The notes under the pieces are model-generated. The model was not told the DNA's origin. It ran no database searches and was given only the letters and a program-made list of their open reading frames with translations. A stretch of DNA of 64,000 bases from Koleobacter methoxysyntrophicus (GTDB lineage Bacteria > Bacillota > Thermosediminibacteria > Koleobacterales > Koleobacteraceae). Positions within the stretch are counted from its first letter, which is position 1; each line of letters starts with the position of its first letter. The position numbers were made by a program, and so were the translations under genes. Shown in pieces: positions 11,182 through 24,366 of the stretch. The stretch spans positions 2,215,001 to 2,279,000 of the forward strand of contig NZ_CP059066.1 in assembly GCF_017301615.1 (NCBI RefSeq). Reading direction: 5' to 3'.

Positions 11182-11258
11182 CTGGGTGTGGCGCAGTTTG
11201 GTAGCGCGCTTGAATGGGGTTCAAGAGGTCGGGGGTTCAAATCCCTCCACTCAGACCA
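11182..11258 (+). tRNA. tRNA-Pro (anticodon GGG)
   Basis: 77 bases with encoded CCA. The acceptor stem CTGGGTG pairs with CACTCAG, with A as discriminator base. The D arm is GCGC...GCGC, the anticodon stem CTTGA/TCAAG encloses the loop ATGGGGT (anticodon GGG, read CCC), and the T arm has TTCAAAT. The 3' half (from 11212) is identical to the end of an integrated element at 26800-26847, so this gene is the integration target and the element supplies its present 3' half. Confidence 0.95.
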
Positions 11259-11343: not shown

Positions 11344-11391
11344 AACCACTTGATTCTTTAGTCAAAAAACTAAGGAATGAGGTGGTTTTTT
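11344..11391 (+). promoter_or_regulatory. Hairpin with arm-like repeat; masks integrase ribosome site
   Basis: A long stem pairs CCACTTGATTCTTTAGT with ACTAAGGAATGAGGTGG (several G-T pairs and a few mismatches) around CAAAAA and is followed by eight T: a terminator-like structure. Its 5' arm (11344-11363) is a 19/20 match to the reverse complement of 26725-26744, suggesting an integrase arm-binding site. Its 3' arm contains GAGGTGG, the best ribosome site of the integrase. Transcription and translation of the integrase may both depend on this fold. Confidence 0.55.
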
Positions 11392-12338: not shown

Positions 12339-12500
12339 ATGTATAATATAAAAACTACAAACATTCCCTACTGCCAATCTTGCGGAAAGGATTTTAGAAA
12401 GGGGGAGATAGTGTATTACGCAAAATGGGACAATGACATAGTATGTCAGAAGTGTTCTGTAGTGCACAGGGAAAAAGAAAAAAGAATATTTCAAAACTAG
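12339..12500 (+). CDS. Small zinc-ribbon protein
   Basis: 53 aa, with CQSCGKDFRKGEIVYYAKW and VCQKCSVVHRE: two CxxC pairs about 27 residues apart, a zinc-ribbon spacing. AAGGGGG ribosome site 7 bases before ATG. It lies 14 bases after the integrase and 16 bases before the next small gene, so it belongs to the same early operon. No function is assignable; such small proteins are common in phage early regions. Confidence 0.7.
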   Translation: MYNIKTTNIPYCQSCGKDFRKGEIVYYAKWDNDIVCQKCSVVHREKEKRIFQN

Positions 12501-12516: not shown

Positions 12517-12738
12517 ATGCTAGAAAGAGAAATAATGCAAAAAAGAATTAGAAGACTGGATGATATTGTGAAATCTATATATGGTGAAGACTTATCTACT
12601 AAGCGGATGAAAGAATTAGAAAACACATCTATAAGAACTATTAACGACTTAGGTTATTATCTGATTGAGACCCATCAATTAGGAAAAGTGGTTAGACAAA
12701 GAGAAAAATATCTACAATCTTTCTTTATTAACCCCTAA
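12517..12738 (+). CDS. Hypothetical phage protein, 73 aa
   Basis: Predicted mostly helical and strongly basic (MQKRIRRLDDIVKSIYGEDLSTKRMKELEN). Good ribosome site AGAAGGAGG before ATG. Ends inside a terminator hairpin. Not recognised. Last gene of the leading transcript, followed by the 169-bp repeat array. Confidence 0.65.
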   Translation: MLEREIMQKRIRRLDDIVKSIYGEDLSTKRMKELENTSIRTINDLGYYLIETHQLGKVVRQREKYLQSFFINP

Positions 12739-12752: not shown

Positions 12753-12860
12753 TTATAGAAAAAACTGCGAAAAATTGGGAATAATGCTTAAAAATTTTTG
12801 TTGTTATATATAAATGTGATAATTACAGGAAAAATTGGGAATAATACCTAAAAAAATTGC

Positions 12861-13007
12861 TTGTTATATATAGAGGGGTTTTTTAAAACTTGTTCTAAGT
12901 GTGGGAAAGTTTATGTGGTTAACAGGAAGTATTTTAGAGAACAGAAAGATTGTAAAATGGGATTAAGACCTGAATGTAGAAAATGTGAAAAAACTGCGAA
13001 AAATTAA
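12861..13007 (+). CDS. Zinc-ribbon peptide, repeat unit 1
   Basis: 48 codons from TTG 12861, reading TCSKCGKVYVVNRKYFREQ and then ECRKCEKTAKN: CxxC-x(~28)-CxxC, a form seen in many phage small proteins and at the N-termini of HNH-type nucleases. The start is uncertain. No Shine-Dalgarno site precedes TTG 12861, and the position that is ATG in unit 3 is ATA here. The stop lies in the first bases of the next unit. Confidence 0.5.
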   Translation: MLYIEGFFKTCSKCGKVYVVNRKYFREQKDCKMGLRPECRKCEKTAKN

Positions 13008-13029
13008 AAATAATACCTAAAAAAATTGC

Positions 13030-13167
13030 TTGTTATATATAGAGGGGTTTTTTAAAACTTGTTCTAAGTGTGGGAAAGTTTATGTTGCTAACAGGAAATA
13101 TTTTAGAGAACGTAATGATAGTAAAGATAAATTACATAATATTTGTAAAGAATGTATGAAATCGTAA
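13030..13167 (+). CDS. Zinc-ribbon peptide, repeat unit 2
   Basis: 45 codons from TTG 13030, with the same N-terminal half as units 1 and 3 (TCSKCGKVYVANRKYFRER) and a diverged second half (NICKECMKS). All four cysteines are kept although the intervening residues differ, which argues for selection on the protein. As in unit 1, the in-frame position used as ATG in unit 3 is ATA. Confidence 0.5.
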   Translation: MLYIEGFFKTCSKCGKVYVANRKYFRERNDSKDKLHNICKECMKS

Positions 13168-13207
13168 AAAAATTGGGAATAATGCCCAAAAAAATTGTTT
13201 GTTATAT

Positions 13208-13345
13208 ATGGAGGGGTTTTTTAAAACTTGTTCTAAGTGTGGGAAAGTTTATGTGGCTAACAGGAAATATTTTAGAGAACGTAATGATAGTAAAGATGGA
13301 TTTAGAAATGAGTGTAGAAAATGCGAAATTTCGGCGAAAAATTAA
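13208..13345 (+). CDS. Zinc-ribbon peptide, repeat unit 3
   Basis: 45 aa from ATG 13208 (MEGFFKTCSKCGKVYVAN, ending ECRKCEISAKN). The only unit with an ATG, placed within the promoter-like TATATATG; no ribosome site precedes it. CxxC pairs as in the other units. An overlapping 68-codon frame (13152-13358) is an out-of-frame shadow. Confidence 0.55.
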   Translation: MEGFFKTCSKCGKVYVANRKYFRERNDSKDGFRNECRKCEISAKN

Positions 13346-13419
13346 AAATAATACCTAAAAAAATTGTTTGTTATATATGGAGGGGTTTTTTCTAATTTTA
13401 AATTGGGGGAGGTGGAATA

Positions 13420-13641
13420 GTGCAACCAAAAATCTTTTCATTAAATAAAGTGGCATATCTCAAGGTAAAGGGATACGAACCAAAAAGAATAGGAAAAGAT
13501 GAGGAAACAGGTAAGATATACTATGAATTTCCTGAAAGTGAGGAAATTAGAGAAAATTTAAGAAAGTATAAGGAAAATAAAGAATTACAAGAGTTTTTAC
13601 GAATATTTAAGGAAATCAAAAAAGAAATTAAATCAATGTAA
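13420..13641 (+). CDS. DUF5659-like phage protein, 73 aa
   Basis: GTG start after GGGGGAGGTGG. The pattern is a lysine-rich strand, a helix (NKVAYLKVKGYEPKRIGKD), a strand (KIYYEFPES), then a charged helix (EEIRENLRKYKEN). This resembles the small phage DUF5659 family, and the gene at 13901 shows the same plan. Function unknown. Translation restarts about 20 bases after the last 169-bp box, whose promoter-like element may drive this gene. Confidence 0.6.
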   Translation: MQPKIFSLNKVAYLKVKGYEPKRIGKDEETGKIYYEFPESEEIRENLRKYKENKELQEFLRIFKEIKKEIKSM

Positions 13642-14089: not shown

Positions 14090-14137
14090 TTTTTTTATTT
14101 AATACAAAAATAAAAAAATACGAAAGGAATGGTAGAT

Positions 14138-17581: not shown

Positions 17582-17983
17582 GTGCTTGATGATAGGAAGT
17601 TGAAATGTATAGAACTACTTGCGTTGGGGACGGAAACAAAAACAGATATAGCAAAGATTGTGGGAGTAAGCAGGCAGGCGATATATGATTGGTTGGATGA
17701 TGCAGAGTTTAAGGCAGAACTGGATAGACGTTTACAGCAGAGGAAGGTTTGGGGAGAGAAAAAACTGGAATCTATGATAACAAAAGCAGTGGATAGAATT
17801 TGGGAAGAAATAGAAACTACAGATAATTCAAGGGTTAGAGCAGAATTGCTTAAATATATTGTAGATAGGGCACTGGGAAGAGTGCCTATGAAGGCTGATG
17901 TAACTGTATCTCCTGGTACTCAAGACAATCAAGAAAGAGAAACATTCTATCAGATGCTAGAGGAAGAAACAGAAGAAGAATAA
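17582..17983 (+). CDS. Phage terminase small subunit (phBC6A51-like HTH)
   Basis: 133 aa. N-terminal helix-turn-helix (TKTDIAKIVGVSRQAIYDWLDD), a middle helical part with the RRLQQRKVWGEKKLESM stretch, and a C-terminal segment ending in an acidic tail. This matches the small terminase subunits related to Bacillus phBC6A51, which recognise phage DNA for packaging. GTG start with GAGGTGG 6 bases upstream. The large subunit that should follow is missing: an IS21 element begins about 75 bases after the stop. Confidence 0.7.
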   Translation: MLDDRKLKCIELLALGTETKTDIAKIVGVSRQAIYDWLDDAEFKAELDRRLQQRKVWGEKKLESMITKAVDRIWEEIETTDNSRVRAELLKYIVDRALGRVPMKADVTVSPGTQDNQERETFYQMLEEETEEE

Positions 17984-18148: not shown

Positions 18149-18880
18149 TTAACCTGGCTGGTGTATCAGGGAGTTCCGCATACGATAGCTTTGTCCGTCA
18201 AATATGAGCAGATAGCTGTGATGCACCAGCCTGTCAATCATGGCGGCAGTCATCTGTTCATCATAGAAGATGCCTACCCACCTGCTGAATTCCAGGTTGG
18301 TGGTGATTATTACGCTTCTTTTTTCGTAGCAGTCGGATATTACCTGAAACAAAAGCTGTGCTCCCTCACGCTCCAGGGGTACATACCCCCATTCATCGCA
18401 GATAAGCAAGTCCAGCTTGCTAAGCTTTTTTAAAAACTTACTAAGTTCACCTCCTTTACTGGCTTCGCTTAACTGGTTAACCAAGGCTGCTGTCCTGAAA
18501 AACCTCACGTTCATCCCCCTGTTGCATGCCTCAACGCCTATGGCGGTAGCCAGGTGCGTCTTACCGGTCCCTACGTTGCCGTATAGTATCAGGTTTCGCT
18601 TTTCTTCTATGAACCGGCATGTTTTTAGGTCCTCAGGAGTCAACCCCTGGGGCATCCTTATTTCATCAAATATGTAGCCGTCAAAGGTTTTGACTGTGTA
18701 AAACCCTGCATTTTTAATAAGCCTGGCTCTTCTGCACTTTTCACGGTGCTCAAGCTCCATCTTGAGTAGTTTCAGGAGAAATTCTTCATGGCTATCTGCT
18801 TTTATATGCCGGCAGTTTTCTGCCATGTTGCGACTGAGTTTTAGGGCTTTACAACATGCTGCTATCTCTTCTTTTAGCAT
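18149..18880 (-). CDS. istB: IS21 helper ATPase IstB
   Basis: AAA+ ATPase that assists the IS21 transposase in target choice. Walker A in LILYGNVGTGKTHLATAIG, Walker B-like LDLLICDEWGY, sensor-like SVIITTNLEFSRW. 243 aa, the usual length. Its start codon overlaps the istA stop (ATGCTAA), the standard coupled arrangement. Appears intact. Confidence 0.93.
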   Translation of the reverse strand: MLKEEIAACCKALKLSRNMAENCRHIKADSHEEFLLKLLKMELEHREKCRRARLIKNAGFYTVKTFDGYIFDEIRMPQGLTPEDLKTCRFIEEKRNLILYGNVGTGKTHLATAIGVEACNRGMNVRFFRTAALVNQLSEASKGGELSKFLKKLSKLDLLICDEWGYVPLEREGAQLLFQVISDCYEKRSVIITTNLEFSRWVGIFYDEQMTAAMIDRLVHHSYLLIFDGQSYRMRNSLIHQPG

Positions 18881-20394
18881 AGTTCTCTGCCCCCTTTCAG
18901 AAAGGCCCTGTCATAGCTTCTTATGTCAAGGTTATATGGTTTAAGGTATGGCAGGTTATCGGGTAGTTTGTTTAGCTTGATGTCAGGTGTAATATCGGTA
19001 AGCCTTTTGTGCAGGGCTATGATACTATCCATATCGTCTACACCAAGTTTTAAGGCTTCATGAAAGGTTTCTACTGCTTTTTCAAAGCCACTATCCTGGG
19101 TGAGGTTTGCAAGTATTTTAAGTGTCTGCGAGCGCTTGCTCCGGCTGCATCTATCCATGTATTCCTTCAATGGCTCGGGAAGCATTTTATATATACCGGA
19201 GTATTTGAGAGCACCGGGACATCTCGAAAGCTGTGTAAGATAGGGAAGCCAGTTCATGCTCTCCTGTTTATTGTTTCCGTATAACCGCCTGTGACGCACT
19301 ATTTCACGATGGTTTTCATCCAAGACAATTACCTCATGGGGAGTTATCTTTACCAACACCCGGGAGTTTGCAAATTTTGGTGCTGTAGAATAGATATGCC
19401 TGCCACCGTTTAGGCTAAACTTGGCATATGTATTCGTCTTAACTGTTTCATAGCTGCATACTTCATATGGGTTTTTGGGAAGAGGCAGCAGTGCTTTTTT
19501 ATCTTCTTCAAATAGTTCTGCAATAACCTTTTCCTTACGATAATGCTCCCTTTGCATATTCTCGTCACATTTTTTTAATAACTCTTGGTTGAATGAGTTA
19601 AGGTCTTCAAATCTGGGTACCGGAACAAGCATGTTACGGCGGTGATAACCTACCTTGGTTTCTACATGGCCTTTTTCATGTCCCGAAGCGGGATTACAGA
19701 ATACAGCCTCGAAGCCGTAATGCTGTTTGAATCGTAGAAATGCTTCTGTAAGCTCACGCTTTCCGTCTTTTAGGATATTGGTGACCATGGTAGATGCATT
19801 ATCAAACCAAAGCCTGTAGGGCACCCCTCCTATGTGCTCAAATATCTTCTTAAGACCTTCTAAAAGACATTCGGTATTCTCTCCCTTGAAAAGTTGGATG
19901 TATCCTCCATTGCTGTGGGGAAAGGATAGGTTAATGTACGCTCCGCTGTAAAAAGTACCGTTTTCGTAGAAGTCTGCCTTCCCGAAATCCACCTGGGCCT
20001 CTCCGGGGATGTGTTCAAGGGGCAGCTTGCAGTCACTTCTTAGCTTAAGCTCCTTTTTCTTCTTAGCTACATACCCTGCCACAGTCCTGTATGAACAGTT
20101 AAAAGTATCCGGATATTTTTCCTTTAGCCTATCATAAACACGTTTGGCAGTATGTCTCTGTTTCCGGCGTACTCTTCTATCTTCCTCAAGCCAGCTGTCT
20201 ATATCAGCCTTGAAAGGTTCAAGTTTGGGGAATTTCCCGCTATTCTCAGCCTTTAACCTAGGTACCATATTCCAATCATCCTGATTTATATATTTACGTA
20301 TGGTTTTTCTGTCTATTCCGGTTTCTCTTGCTATTTCCGACTTATTCATCCCTTTTAAAAAGAACATTTCTCTGATAGAATTAATATCAGCCAT
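18874..20394 (-). CDS. istA: IS21 transposase IstA
   Basis: DDE transposase. N-terminal helix-turn-helix (MNKSEIARETGIDRKTIRKYI), central rve core with the first Asp in GEAQVDFGKADF, the second in PYRLWFDNASTMV, and the Glu in GHEKGHVETKVGYHRRN, then a C-terminal beta domain. Start set at ATG 20394 because AAGGAGGATG precedes it; the open frame extends upstream into the IS end without a ribosome site. 506 aa. Appears intact. Confidence 0.93.
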   Translation of the reverse strand: MADINSIREMFFLKGMNKSEIARETGIDRKTIRKYINQDDWNMVPRLKAENSGKFPKLEPFKADIDSWLEEDRRVRRKQRHTAKRVYDRLKEKYPDTFNCSYRTVAGYVAKKKKELKLRSDCKLPLEHIPGEAQVDFGKADFYENGTFYSGAYINLSFPHSNGGYIQLFKGENTECLLEGLKKIFEHIGGVPYRLWFDNASTMVTNILKDGKRELTEAFLRFKQHYGFEAVFCNPASGHEKGHVETKVGYHRRNMLVPVPRFEDLNSFNQELLKKCDENMQREHYRKEKVIAELFEEDKKALLPLPKNPYEVCSYETVKTNTYAKFSLNGGRHIYSTAPKFANSRVLVKITPHEVIVLDENHREIVRHRRLYGNNKQESMNWLPYLTQLSRCPGALKYSGIYKMLPEPLKEYMDRCSRSKRSQTLKILANLTQDSGFEKAVETFHEALKLGVDDMDSIIALHKRLTDITPDIKLNKLPDNLPYLKPYNLDIRSYDRAFLKGGRELC

Positions 20395-20561
20395 TGTAAG
20401 CATCCTCCTTAATTCCTCCCTTGCAGATTTGTTCTTACCTACAAGGGTAATGGATTTAGTGGGTGCCTGCAATGGCTTTTGCAATATTGGGGAATTCATA
20501 GTTGCAAAAGTGGGGAATTCCTTTTGCAACTTTGTCCATTTTTATTATACAATAAACAATA

Positions 20562-20917: not shown

Positions 20918-23380
20918 TTGACTCAATTTGGAGAAAATATTTTTGGCAGTGGAATATTCGGAGTAATAATTGAACAACCTTCAAAAAAAGAAATAAAAAA
21001 ACCCCCTGAATTACCCAGGGTTTACGATAAATTTGAAACTGATTTCAATCATTCTGGATTGGCAGTATTAGAAAATGCTTATAAGGTAAAAATTACAGAA
21101 GTTTTAAATGGAGAGTTTATACTCTCCTTTTTTATTCCAATCAAAGATGAAAAATTCCAGTATATTCAAGAAGAAAACTATGTTAAAGTAGACGGTCAAA
21201 TTTTTATTATCAAAAAAATCAAGAAACAAAGAACAGAAGAAGGAAAACTTTTGGCAGAAATTTTTTGTGAACATGTTTCATACGAATTGTTAGATTTCTA
21301 CCTTGAACCCGTAACATATGAAAATCAAACAATTTCATATATAGCAGGAAAAATACTGGAAAATACTCCTTTTTCCTTGCAATATACAGAATTAGATTAT
21401 AACATTGATTTCAATTTTGAAGGTGGAAACAGAAGGAAAGCATTATTTCAATTGTTACAGCAGATAGATGGAGAAGTTATATTTGACAACTACAATATAG
21501 CAATAGTAGAACAAAGAGGACAAAACCTAGCCACAGAATTTAGAGTTGGAAAAAATATTAAAAAATCAGTTCAGGAAAAATCCAGTGATGAAATTATTAC
21601 TCGGCTTTATGTTTTTGGGAAAAATGGTTTAACTATCGAAAGTGTTAATAATGGTTTAAAATATATTGATTCTGATAATATTAATGATTTCAAATACCCT
21701 AAAGAAAAAGCAGTATATTTCAATGATATAGACAATCCTAATGAATTACTGCAAGCAGGACAGAAATATTTACAGGAAAATAATCAAACAAAAGTAATTT
21801 ACAACATAGATATTATAGATTTATCAAAAATATACCCAGTAGAAAAATTCAGTCTAGGGGATACTTGCAGGGTATTAGATGAGGAATTAAGTATATCTGT
21901 TACTGCAAGAATAATGCAGTATGAATATTACCCTTATGATTATGAAAATACAAAGGTTGTATTGGGAAATTATCAGGAGAATATTGTAAACACAATAGAT
22001 GAATTGCAGGATACTAAATCAAAGATTGATAATCTATACAATAAAGGAGTAATAACTCCTAAAAATACCCTTTCCTCTCAATGGCTAGAAGGTGCTATTG
22101 ATACAGCAACTAATCAGATTCTTTCAGGTGGAGGATATATAAAACAAGATGCTAGAGGTTTATTGATATTAGACAATCCAAATGAAAATTTGGCACAGAA
22201 TGTAATACGAATTAACGAAAATGGCATTGGATTATCTACTACTGGTATTAGCGGAGAATTCAGAACCGCTATGACTGCTGAAGGTATTGTAGCAGATAGG
22301 ATTACTTCAGGACAGTTATCAACTTCATTGGTAAAAATATTTGGAGATACTCATTTTTATTGGGATACGAACGGAATATATATTCAAGACCCTGCTGATA
22401 CAAATAAATATATAACCATAGACAAAAACGGTATTAGATATACCACGGATGACGGGAATACCTTTGACATTGAAATTGGTTGGAATGGCAGTAATATTAT
22501 TACCGAAGGGAAAGAGTATAGTAAAGTTAAAATAACGTCTGAAAATGGAATTGAAGTTTTTGATGCTAACAACAACGAACGACTCAAAATAGCAGACTTA
22601 GGTAGTGGTAAATATGGAATACAAATCAAAAAAGCAGACGGAACAGTAACTTTTGATGTAAAATCAGATGGCACTGTATCTATTATAGATGGTAGTATAG
22701 ACATAACTCATTCAGATGGCAGCGAGAGTATATTAGACGCAAATGGATTGCAGGTTATTTTTGAAAAAGACGCATATGGTAATCCCTATTCCTATACAAT
22801 TTATGATGCTAATGGACAAAGGAGATATTTAAAAGGTAAGCGTGTTGCTACTTTTTTTGTAGTTGGTAGTGGAGATGGGTGGACAGATAATGTTTTAGAG
22901 AATCTTTCGTATGGAGACACTATTGATTATTATGTATATGTATTTTTAGATTTAATTGGAGAAGCATGGCATGAATTGGCAACAATATATAACCAAGTTT
23001 TAAATGATACTTCAAAAACAGAAACAGAAAGAAAAAATATTTTAAGTCAAATACTAACAGCGTCATGCATGGCCATAGAAGACAATGGAGAACCAGATAA
23101 TTATAATTATTTGCAGACAAGAACTGCTGAATTTTTAACAAAACAAATAGCAACATCTGGAATATATGTTCCTGAAATTATTGCAGTTGATGTAAATGAT
23201 ACTGTAGCAAAAGATTCTAGGTCTAGTCCTTCTTATAGAACAATTGATTTTAGAGGTGCTGTAATGAGGGCTAAAGGGTATGCCAAATACACTCATAACG
23301 GGGGAACTGTATGGTGGACTTTTTATAAGGATGTTAGAATTATTATGCAGGCAAATGGAACATTGGATGTAGATTTTTAA
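20918..23380 (+). CDS. Phage minor tail / tail-tip protein (Prophage_tail)
   Basis: 820 aa. The first about 400 residues read as a siphovirus tail-endopeptidase/tail-tip protein (AVLENAYKVKITEVLNGEFILSF-type opening, EEGKLLAEIFCEHVSYELLD, then KFSLGDTCRVLDEELSISV). The rest is fibre-like with repeated beta units (DANNNERLKIADLGSGKYG; VTFDVKSDGTVSIIDGSIDI). TTG start after GAGAGGTGAAG. It probably forms the host-contacting baseplate part. A 7-bp terminator-like hairpin with six T lies in the gene at 21110-21133. Apparently full length, although the tail genes before it are lost. Confidence 0.8.
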   Translation: MTQFGENIFGSGIFGVIIEQPSKKEIKKPPELPRVYDKFETDFNHSGLAVLENAYKVKITEVLNGEFILSFFIPIKDEKFQYIQEENYVKVDGQIFIIKKIKKQRTEEGKLLAEIFCEHVSYELLDFYLEPVTYENQTISYIAGKILENTPFSLQYTELDYNIDFNFEGGNRRKALFQLLQQIDGEVIFDNYNIAIVEQRGQNLATEFRVGKNIKKSVQEKSSDEIITRLYVFGKNGLTIESVNNGLKYIDSDNINDFKYPKEKAVYFNDIDNPNELLQAGQKYLQENNQTKVIYNIDIIDLSKIYPVEKFSLGDTCRVLDEELSISVTARIMQYEYYPYDYENTKVVLGNYQENIVNTIDELQDTKSKIDNLYNKGVITPKNTLSSQWLEGAIDTATNQILSGGGYIKQDARGLLILDNPNENLAQNVIRINENGIGLSTTGISGEFRTAMTAEGIVADRITSGQLSTSLVKIFGDTHFYWDTNGIYIQDPADTNKYITIDKNGIRYTTDDGNTFDIEIGWNGSNIITEGKEYSKVKITSENGIEVFDANNNERLKIADLGSGKYGIQIKKADGTVTFDVKSDGTVSIIDGSIDITHSDGSESILDANGLQVIFEKDAYGNPYSYTIYDANGQRRYLKGKRVATFFVVGSGDGWTDNVLENLSYGDTIDYYVYVFLDLIGEAWHELATIYNQVLNDTSKTETERKNILSQILTASCMAIEDNGEPDNYNYLQTRTAEFLTKQIATSGIYVPEIIAVDVNDTVAKDSRSSPSYRTIDFRGAVMRAKGYAKYTHNGGTVWWTFYKDVRIIMQANGTLDVDF

Positions 23381-23757: not shown

Positions 23758-24366
23758 ATGATTCAGTGGAAGGGTATCACCTTTCACCATACCGGATATG
23801 AGAAACCTATTTCAAGGCAGGAGATAGACGAACTTCATCTAAAAAACGGATGGGGTAGGAAGTGGAACGGAAGACTGTATGCAGGAGGGTATCATTTTTT
23901 AATTCATGAAAACGGTATATTTGAAACAATGAGACCTCTAGATATTCCCGGTTCTCATGCAAATAAGTATAATTATACTCATATAGCCATAGCCCTGAAT
24001 GGCAATTTTGAAAAATATCAACCTACCCAAGAGCAGTATATCACAAGCGCTTTTTTGGCTAGTTGGTTAATGAAAAAATATACTTTTTGTGTTAATAACC
24101 TAACTACTCATCGAAATCAATTCTATATTAATGATAATGGAATTCCAAAAAATCAAACAGTATGCCCTGGAAAATATTTTGAATTAAATAAAATTACTAA
24201 AATTATAGAAAAAGAAGAAGAAACAGCAGATGTATATTTCAATGGAGTAAAATTGCAGAATAAGGCTATTGTTAGAGATGGTACTTCTTATATTCCCATA
24301 AGGGAATTATGCGAAAAACTAGGGGTAGAAGTAATTTGGGACGGAAAAATTAATTTAAGGAGGTAG
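23758..24366 (+). CDS. Phage endolysin: N-acetylmuramoyl-L-alanine amidase
   Basis: 202 aa. Amidase_2 catalytic part with zinc ligands visible as FHHTGYEKP (residues 8-16), THRNQFYINDNG and the closing TVCPGKYF. Residues about 155-202 form a copper-amine-oxidase-N/stalk-type repeat (YFNGVKLQNKAIVRDGTSYI, then PIRELCEKLGVEVIW) that may bind the wall. Perfect TAGGAGGTAGGG ribosome site. Directly before the holin, forming a lysis cassette. Confidence 0.88.
   Translation: MIQWKGITFHHTGYEKPISRQEIDELHLKNGWGRKWNGRLYAGGYHFLIHENGIFETMRPLDIPGSHANKYNYTHIAIALNGNFEKYQPTQEQYITSAFLASWLMKKYTFCVNNLTTHRNQFYINDNGIPKNQTVCPGKYFELNKITKIIEKEEETADVYFNGVKLQNKAIVRDGTSYIPIRELCEKLGVEVIWDGKINLRR

What the first reader, a model, noticed from the sequence alone, without database searches (positions are those of the whole stretch)
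12764..13397. Exact 169-bp tandem array of zinc-ribbon micro-cassettes
Three complete units and two partial flanking ones are spaced exactly 169 bases. Each full unit holds a promoter-like box (TG-T-TATATA), a conserved GAGGGG-TTTTTT element, and a 45-48 codon CxxC...CxxC frame whose stop falls in the next unit's box. The peptide halves differ among units while all four cysteines remain, so protein selection is plausible. A series of duplicated peptides with individual promoters could be a diversifying anti-defence or transcription-modulating set. The duplications themselves are seen; the function is inference.
Basis: partly seen in the sequence, partly recalled or inferred. Interest (0 to 1): 0.75.

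Follow-up and report, generated by a model that had tools for sequence, protein, structure and literature searches.

The report
Tandem copies of phage regulator tails
A decayed bacterial virus in this genome carries a 169-base repeat in which each copy is the tail end of a viral late-gene regulator (a zinc-binding domain without a start codon) plus the promoter-like stretch that normally follows that gene; similar arrays in other bacteria suggest the copies act as switch DNA or spare tail ends rather than as a set of small proteins.

Summary
The 169-bp array is real (TRF 12829-13391; four boxes exactly 169 apart; four cysteines kept in all three frames). Each unit is collinear with the 3' end of an intact phage regulator gene plus its downstream flank (unit 1 vs L032: 78% over 169 bp; Geobacillus virus E3 gp4: 83% over 98 bp). 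The ribbon is the C-terminal domain of a phage regulator (PHROG 5767 'sigma factor') encoded at the head of the late genes. The frames lack ATG/GTG/TTG after GAGGGG. Similar start-less arrays occur in three further sources (L037, G076, G004); there the box is the common denominator (about 22 boxes, 9 full ribbons) and truncated ribbons keep the 3' end. Within arrays the first ribbon half is near-identical and the second divergent; Clostridioides phages swap the same ~52-bp half inside the regulator gene. Best explanation: tandem portable regulator-responsive late promoters, with operator DNA in the ribbon codons as shown for staphylococcal Ltr. That function is inferred. Rivals: functionless debris, cassette store, translated peptides. 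An 11:1 synonymous bias keeps protein-linked explanations alive.

The parts
12758..12815 (+). Partial unit 0: last ~7 ribbon codons (GAAAAAACTGCGAAAAATT, same as end of unit 1) plus a diverged box without GGGG
12815..12885 (+). Partial unit 0b: ribbon tail TGTGATAATTACAGGAAAAA (identical to the G004 solo unit) plus box TTATATATAGAGGGGT
12873..13007 (+). Unit 1 ribbon segment (start-less frame, 4 Cys); nearest intact gene L032 regulator, 78% over 169 bp including stop and box
13008..13053 (+). Box after unit 1 (TTATATATAGAGGGGTTTTTT)
13042..13167 (+). Unit 2 ribbon segment (4 Cys); best match over its whole length in the G004 units L008/L023
13168..13222 (+). Box after unit 2
13211..13345 (+). 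Unit 3 ribbon segment (4 Cys); nearest L032 and E3 regulators
13346..13392 (+). Last box, facing the downstream gene
13420..13641 (+). First gene downstream of the array (DUF5659), with its own ribosome-binding site

Best explanation
Shown: each unit is a copy of the 3' end of a phage regulator gene (C-terminal zinc ribbon, PHROG 5767) together with the promoter-like flank that follows that gene; it is detached from the rest of the gene, so it has no start codon, and is repeated in tandem in a prophage remnant where no intact ribbon-bearing regulator was found. Inferred: the unit works as DNA. [quoted passage not shown] The array would be a bank of four to five late promoters facing downstream phage genes, switched on by a regulator made by another phage in the same cell, or titrating that regulator. 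Recombination with different phage alleles supplied the differing second halves.
For: Collinear DNA match of unit 1 with intact regulator L032 through ribbon, stop and box (78%, 169 bp) and with E3 gp4 (83%, 98 bp). PHROG 5767 C-terminal match. Intact regulators are followed by a related box in several diverged phages; in LIBA6276 the box is single-copy, behind the regulator at the head of the late genes. Independent start-less arrays in L037, G076, G004 share the layout. Box is the common denominator and truncated ribbons keep the 3' end. A-tracts phased 10.5-11 bp upstream of the box. [quoted passage not shown]
Against: No expression or binding data. Window boxes are not above chance as sigma-70 sites, while L037 boxes have TTGACA-17-TATATA and might not need an activator. 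First halves show 11 synonymous: 1 nonsynonymous change, which pure operator function does not predict without ongoing exchange with coding copies. The regulator's 'sigma'/late role rests on annotation and position; its predicted fold had no significant PDB match. The prophage is a remnant. E3 and some other regulators lack the GGGG part.
Confidence: 0.45

Rival explanations
1. Recombination debris: 3' ends of regulator genes were caught in prophages during phage-phage recombination and multiplied by unequal crossing-over, with no present function.
For: The window prophage is a remnant cut by IS elements; truncated ribbons exist; the arrays are rare: 4 of 398 genomes of the phylum have ribbons at all.
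Against: The same layout recurs in at least four sources; cysteines and frames are intact in nine ribbons; boxes stay similar while spacers differ; truncation is one-sided.
Confidence: 0.25
2. Small zinc-ribbon proteins expressed from tandem promoters, for example isolated domains that interfere with the regulator of a competing phage. Start would be non-standard or the upstream TTG.
For: Cysteines kept; 11:1 synonymous bias; GAGGGG is Shine-Dalgarno-like; AUA/AUC codons lie near it in L037 and G004; in G043 two related tandem ribbons do have GTG starts.
Against: No ATG/GTG/TTG between GGGG element and first cysteine in any of nine ribbons; in the window the TTG lies inside the box; box-only units in the same arrays; G076 units lack the GGGG element.
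Confidence: 0.15
3. Cassette store: start-less variants of the second ribbon half, flanked by constant first half and box, act as recombination donors that change the regulator of resident or incoming phages (shufflon- or pilS-like).
For: Constant/variable/constant layout in five sources; the regulator gene of Clostridioides phages is swapped at the same ~52 bp; window units resemble different alleles.
Against: Intact ribbon-bearing regulator not found in the array-bearing genomes G000, G004 and G076 or in the L037 record; no dedicated recombinase identified; no donor-recipient pair with identical second half was found.
Confidence: 0.12

Closest known systems
PHROG 5767 'sigma factor' genes (Geobacillus virus E3 gp4; Clostridioides, Mammaliicoccus, Enterococcus, Brevibacillus phages)
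   Same: Units are collinear at DNA level with the 3' end of such genes plus flank.
   Different: Units lack the whole N-terminal and HTH part and any start codon.
RinA/Ltr late regulators with adjacent promoter (Staphylococcus phi13 Ltr; lactococcal TP901-1 Alt)
   Same: Regulator encoded directly upstream of a promoter; [quoted passage not shown]
   Different: No homology tested or claimed; the regulator here ends in a zinc ribbon, and regulator dependence is not shown.
Satellite or prophage promoters answering to another phage's late activator (P4 with P2 Ogr; staphylococcal islands; from own knowledge)
   Same: An element carries promoters for which the activator gene is elsewhere.
   Different: Here the element is a prophage remnant, copies are tandem, and no helper is known.
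Shufflon / pilS-like silent cassettes (from own knowledge)
   Same: Start-less 3' gene segments with constant and variable parts.
   Different: No acceptor gene in the same genome and no assigned recombinase.

Membership tests
PHROG 5767 phage regulator | C-terminal zinc ribbon similar in sequence | tested here: met
   E 3.5e-10, 1.1e-7, 1.8e-9 for the three window frames; DNA collinearity
PHROG 5767 phage regulator | Full-length protein with N-terminal region and HTH | tested here: not met
   Only model positions ~350-392 of 393 are matched in G000
Expressed small zinc-ribbon protein gene | Standard start codon behind a Shine-Dalgarno site | tested here: not met
   Only a TTG upstream of GAGGGG in the window; none in L037, G004 solo unit, G076
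Expressed small zinc-ribbon protein gene | Transcript and ribosome occupancy | not testable with these tools
   No expression data
Ltr/RinA-type regulated late promoter | Promoter directly behind the regulator gene | tested here: met
   In intact relatives: box behind the gene in L032 and Clostridioides phages; single copy in LIBA6276
Ltr/RinA-type regulated late promoter | Direct repeats upstream of the start site serving as operator | tested here: inconclusive
   11-bp repeated TGYGAAAAA in some loci and phased A-tracts; no binding data
Ltr/RinA-type regulated late promoter | Activation depends on the regulator | not testable with these tools
   Needs reporter assay
Structured non-coding RNA repeat | Stable conserved structure | tested here: not met
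   z-scores -1.6 to +0.8; no Rfam match in the array
Silent cassette store | Acceptor gene in the same genome | tested here: not met
   No further ribbon in G000, and no full-length ribbon-bearing regulator in G004 or G076

The most novel reading that the evidence does not exclude
The exchanged ~52-60-bp cassette is at once the coding sequence of the recognition half of the regulator's zinc ribbon and part of the DNA site it recognises, so one small swap changes protein and operator together; arrays in resident prophages are banks of allele-specific late promoters that sense or soak up the regulators of several different incoming phages.
Probability: 0.12. Interest if true: 0.85.

Novelty: new variant of a known kind. 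Interest (0 to 1): 0.5.

Why it matters
If right, phage late promoters can travel as compact pieces that include the end of their activator's gene, and prophages collect them from several other phages; that is a simple route by which one phage becomes wired to another's late switch. The Clostridioides comparison separately shows a hypervariable, recombinationally swapped half-domain inside a phage regulator, which makes regulator specificity directly testable with reporters that differ by about 52 bp.

Tried and rejected
Structured RNA: folds of seven units no better than shuffles; Rfam empty in the array. Phage-wide promoter motif: box is single-copy in LIBA6276 and, as an exact match, confined to the array in the window. 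Alternative-frame ORFs across units: their start is not conserved in G004. Integrase search of genome contigs gave only distant integrases. A pattern search of 398 genomes for GGGGT + CxxC was swamped by chance hits. AlphaFold model of the L032 regulator: mean pLDDT 68, no significant PDB match, so 'sigma factor' is not confirmed by fold; Pfam supports an HTH clearly only in the Clostridioides group. A wider viral scan gave C-terminal ribbons of long proteins and N-terminal ribbons of other (endonuclease-like) proteins but no new start-less arrays. Text searches found no description of these arrays (not exhaustive). Diversity-generating retroelement: the differences are not confined to A positions; no dedicated search for a reverse transcriptase was made.

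Full report
OBSERVATION. The array is real. Tandem Repeats Finder gives period 169, 3.3 copies, score 796 at 12829-13391. The box TTATATATRGAGGGGT occurs exactly at 12864, 13033, 13202 and 13371. The three frames keep CxxC...CxxC and end just inside the next unit. A shorter unit lies upstream, 60 bp from the next.

SETTING. The array lies in a prophage remnant beside tRNA-Pro (11182-11258): integrase at 11377, small genes with a terminator-like site at 12730, the array, a primase-like gene at 14129, a small terminase subunit at 17582, an IS21 element at 18149-20529, a tail endopeptidase at 20918, an amidase at 23758, then transposases and, from about 29 kb, host-type genes. No other copy of the ribbon was found in the 3.1-Mb genome.

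ORIGIN. The ribbon matches the C-terminal 40 positions of PHROG 5767, annotated 'sigma factor'. At DNA level unit 1 is collinear with the 3' end of the intact regulator gene in L032, its stop codon and its downstream flank (169 bp, 78%, E 1e-31), and with Geobacillus virus E3 gp4 over 98 bp (83%). In Clostridioides phage LIBA6276 the gene stands shortly before the terminase and structural genes, and the box behind it is single-copy. The 'sigma' label is not confirmed: Pfam finds a LuxR-type HTH before the ribbon in the Clostridioides group (2e-9), and a medium-confidence model had no significant PDB match. 'Late regulator' is inference from position. The window units resemble different alleles: unit 0b has a 20-bp tail identical to the G004 solo unit, unit 2 is nearest G004, units 1 and 3 are nearest L032 and E3.

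OTHER ARRAYS. Three more sources hold start-less ribbons fused to such boxes: L037 (four boxes, two full ribbons, one truncated), G076 (L094: seven boxes, two full ribbons, one truncated) and G004 (L023 with a solo unit, L008 with about four boxes). Counted by eye, with the window: 22 boxes and nine full ribbons. Some units are only about 60-68 bp. The truncated ribbons I found keep the end that adjoins the next box. G043 (L095) has two more distant tandem ribbons that do have GTG starts. Ribbons at E <= 1e-6 were found in 4 of 398 genomes of the phylum and, in another class reached through L004, in 4 of 399, all within long frames. In most phage records with the intact regulator there is one ribbon per genome.

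CONSTANT AND VARIABLE HALVES. In every array pair the first half is near-identical and the second diverged; Fisher P ranges from 4e-3 to 3e-9 over seven pairs, the three window pairs not being independent. The same boundary appears inside the regulator gene of Clostridioides phages. L109 and L113 agree at 935 of 936 sites upstream (first ribbon half included), then 67% over 52 bp, then 93-98%. L109 and L108 agree at 81-91% upstream but 98% in those 52 bp. L113 and L176, about half identical elsewhere, share 81-82% in both ribbon halves. So the half-ribbon is exchanged between phages. Differences in first halves of the start-less arrays are 11 synonymous to 1 nonsynonymous (P about 1e-6; without G004, 6 to 1, P about 1e-3). 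Either the orphans are translated, or they exchange with translated regulator genes, or the copies were captured separately.

MECHANISM. In Staphylococcus phage phi13 the late regulator Ltr is encoded directly upstream of its promoter and the target repeats lie at the 3' end of its own coding sequence; deleting them abolishes promoter activity (PMC13123087). A detached [3' end + promoter] would then be a complete regulated promoter. That explains the missing starts, the one-sided truncations and the box as common denominator. A-tracts upstream of the box are phased at 10.5-11 bp over ten loci (0 of 300 shuffles); single loci average about twice the genome-window mean, and copies from one array are not independent. 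Units show no RNA structure beyond shuffles. Activation of the boxes by such a regulator is inferred, not shown.

VERDICT. Origin from the regulator 3' end is well supported. Function as portable late promoters is the best-supported reading at about 0.45, against debris 0.25, peptides 0.15 and a cassette store 0.12. New variant of a known kind; interest 0.5.

Noticed in passing
L037:1310-1900: Long apparently non-coding stretch between integrase and the array, preceded by AAAATGGAGGGGTGC; no Rfam match at gathering threshold. Could be a large phage RNA.
   Followed up: partly
L032:2960-3060: The leader behind the regulator gene holds GGGGTATT...AATACCCC, a possible stem at the very start of a transcript from the box.
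   Followed up: no
L107-L116, L171-L177: Clostridioides phages exchange a ~52-bp second half of the zinc ribbon in an otherwise identical regulator gene: a hypervariable half-domain.
   Followed up: yes
L026:17564-18001: OLE RNA near one of the G004 arrays (Rfam RF01071, 343.9 bits).
   Followed up: no
window 12339-12500: Another small zinc-ribbon gene (53 aa, ATG start) between integrase and array, not similar enough to the units to be a copy.
   Followed up: partly
L008 and L023: Both G004 arrays lie directly beside the same IS21-type element end; in L008 the element abuts the last box.
   Followed up: no
L185, L221, L040: Phage regulators of this family with in-frame TGA or TAG before the ribbon, suggesting recoded phages.
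   Followed up: no
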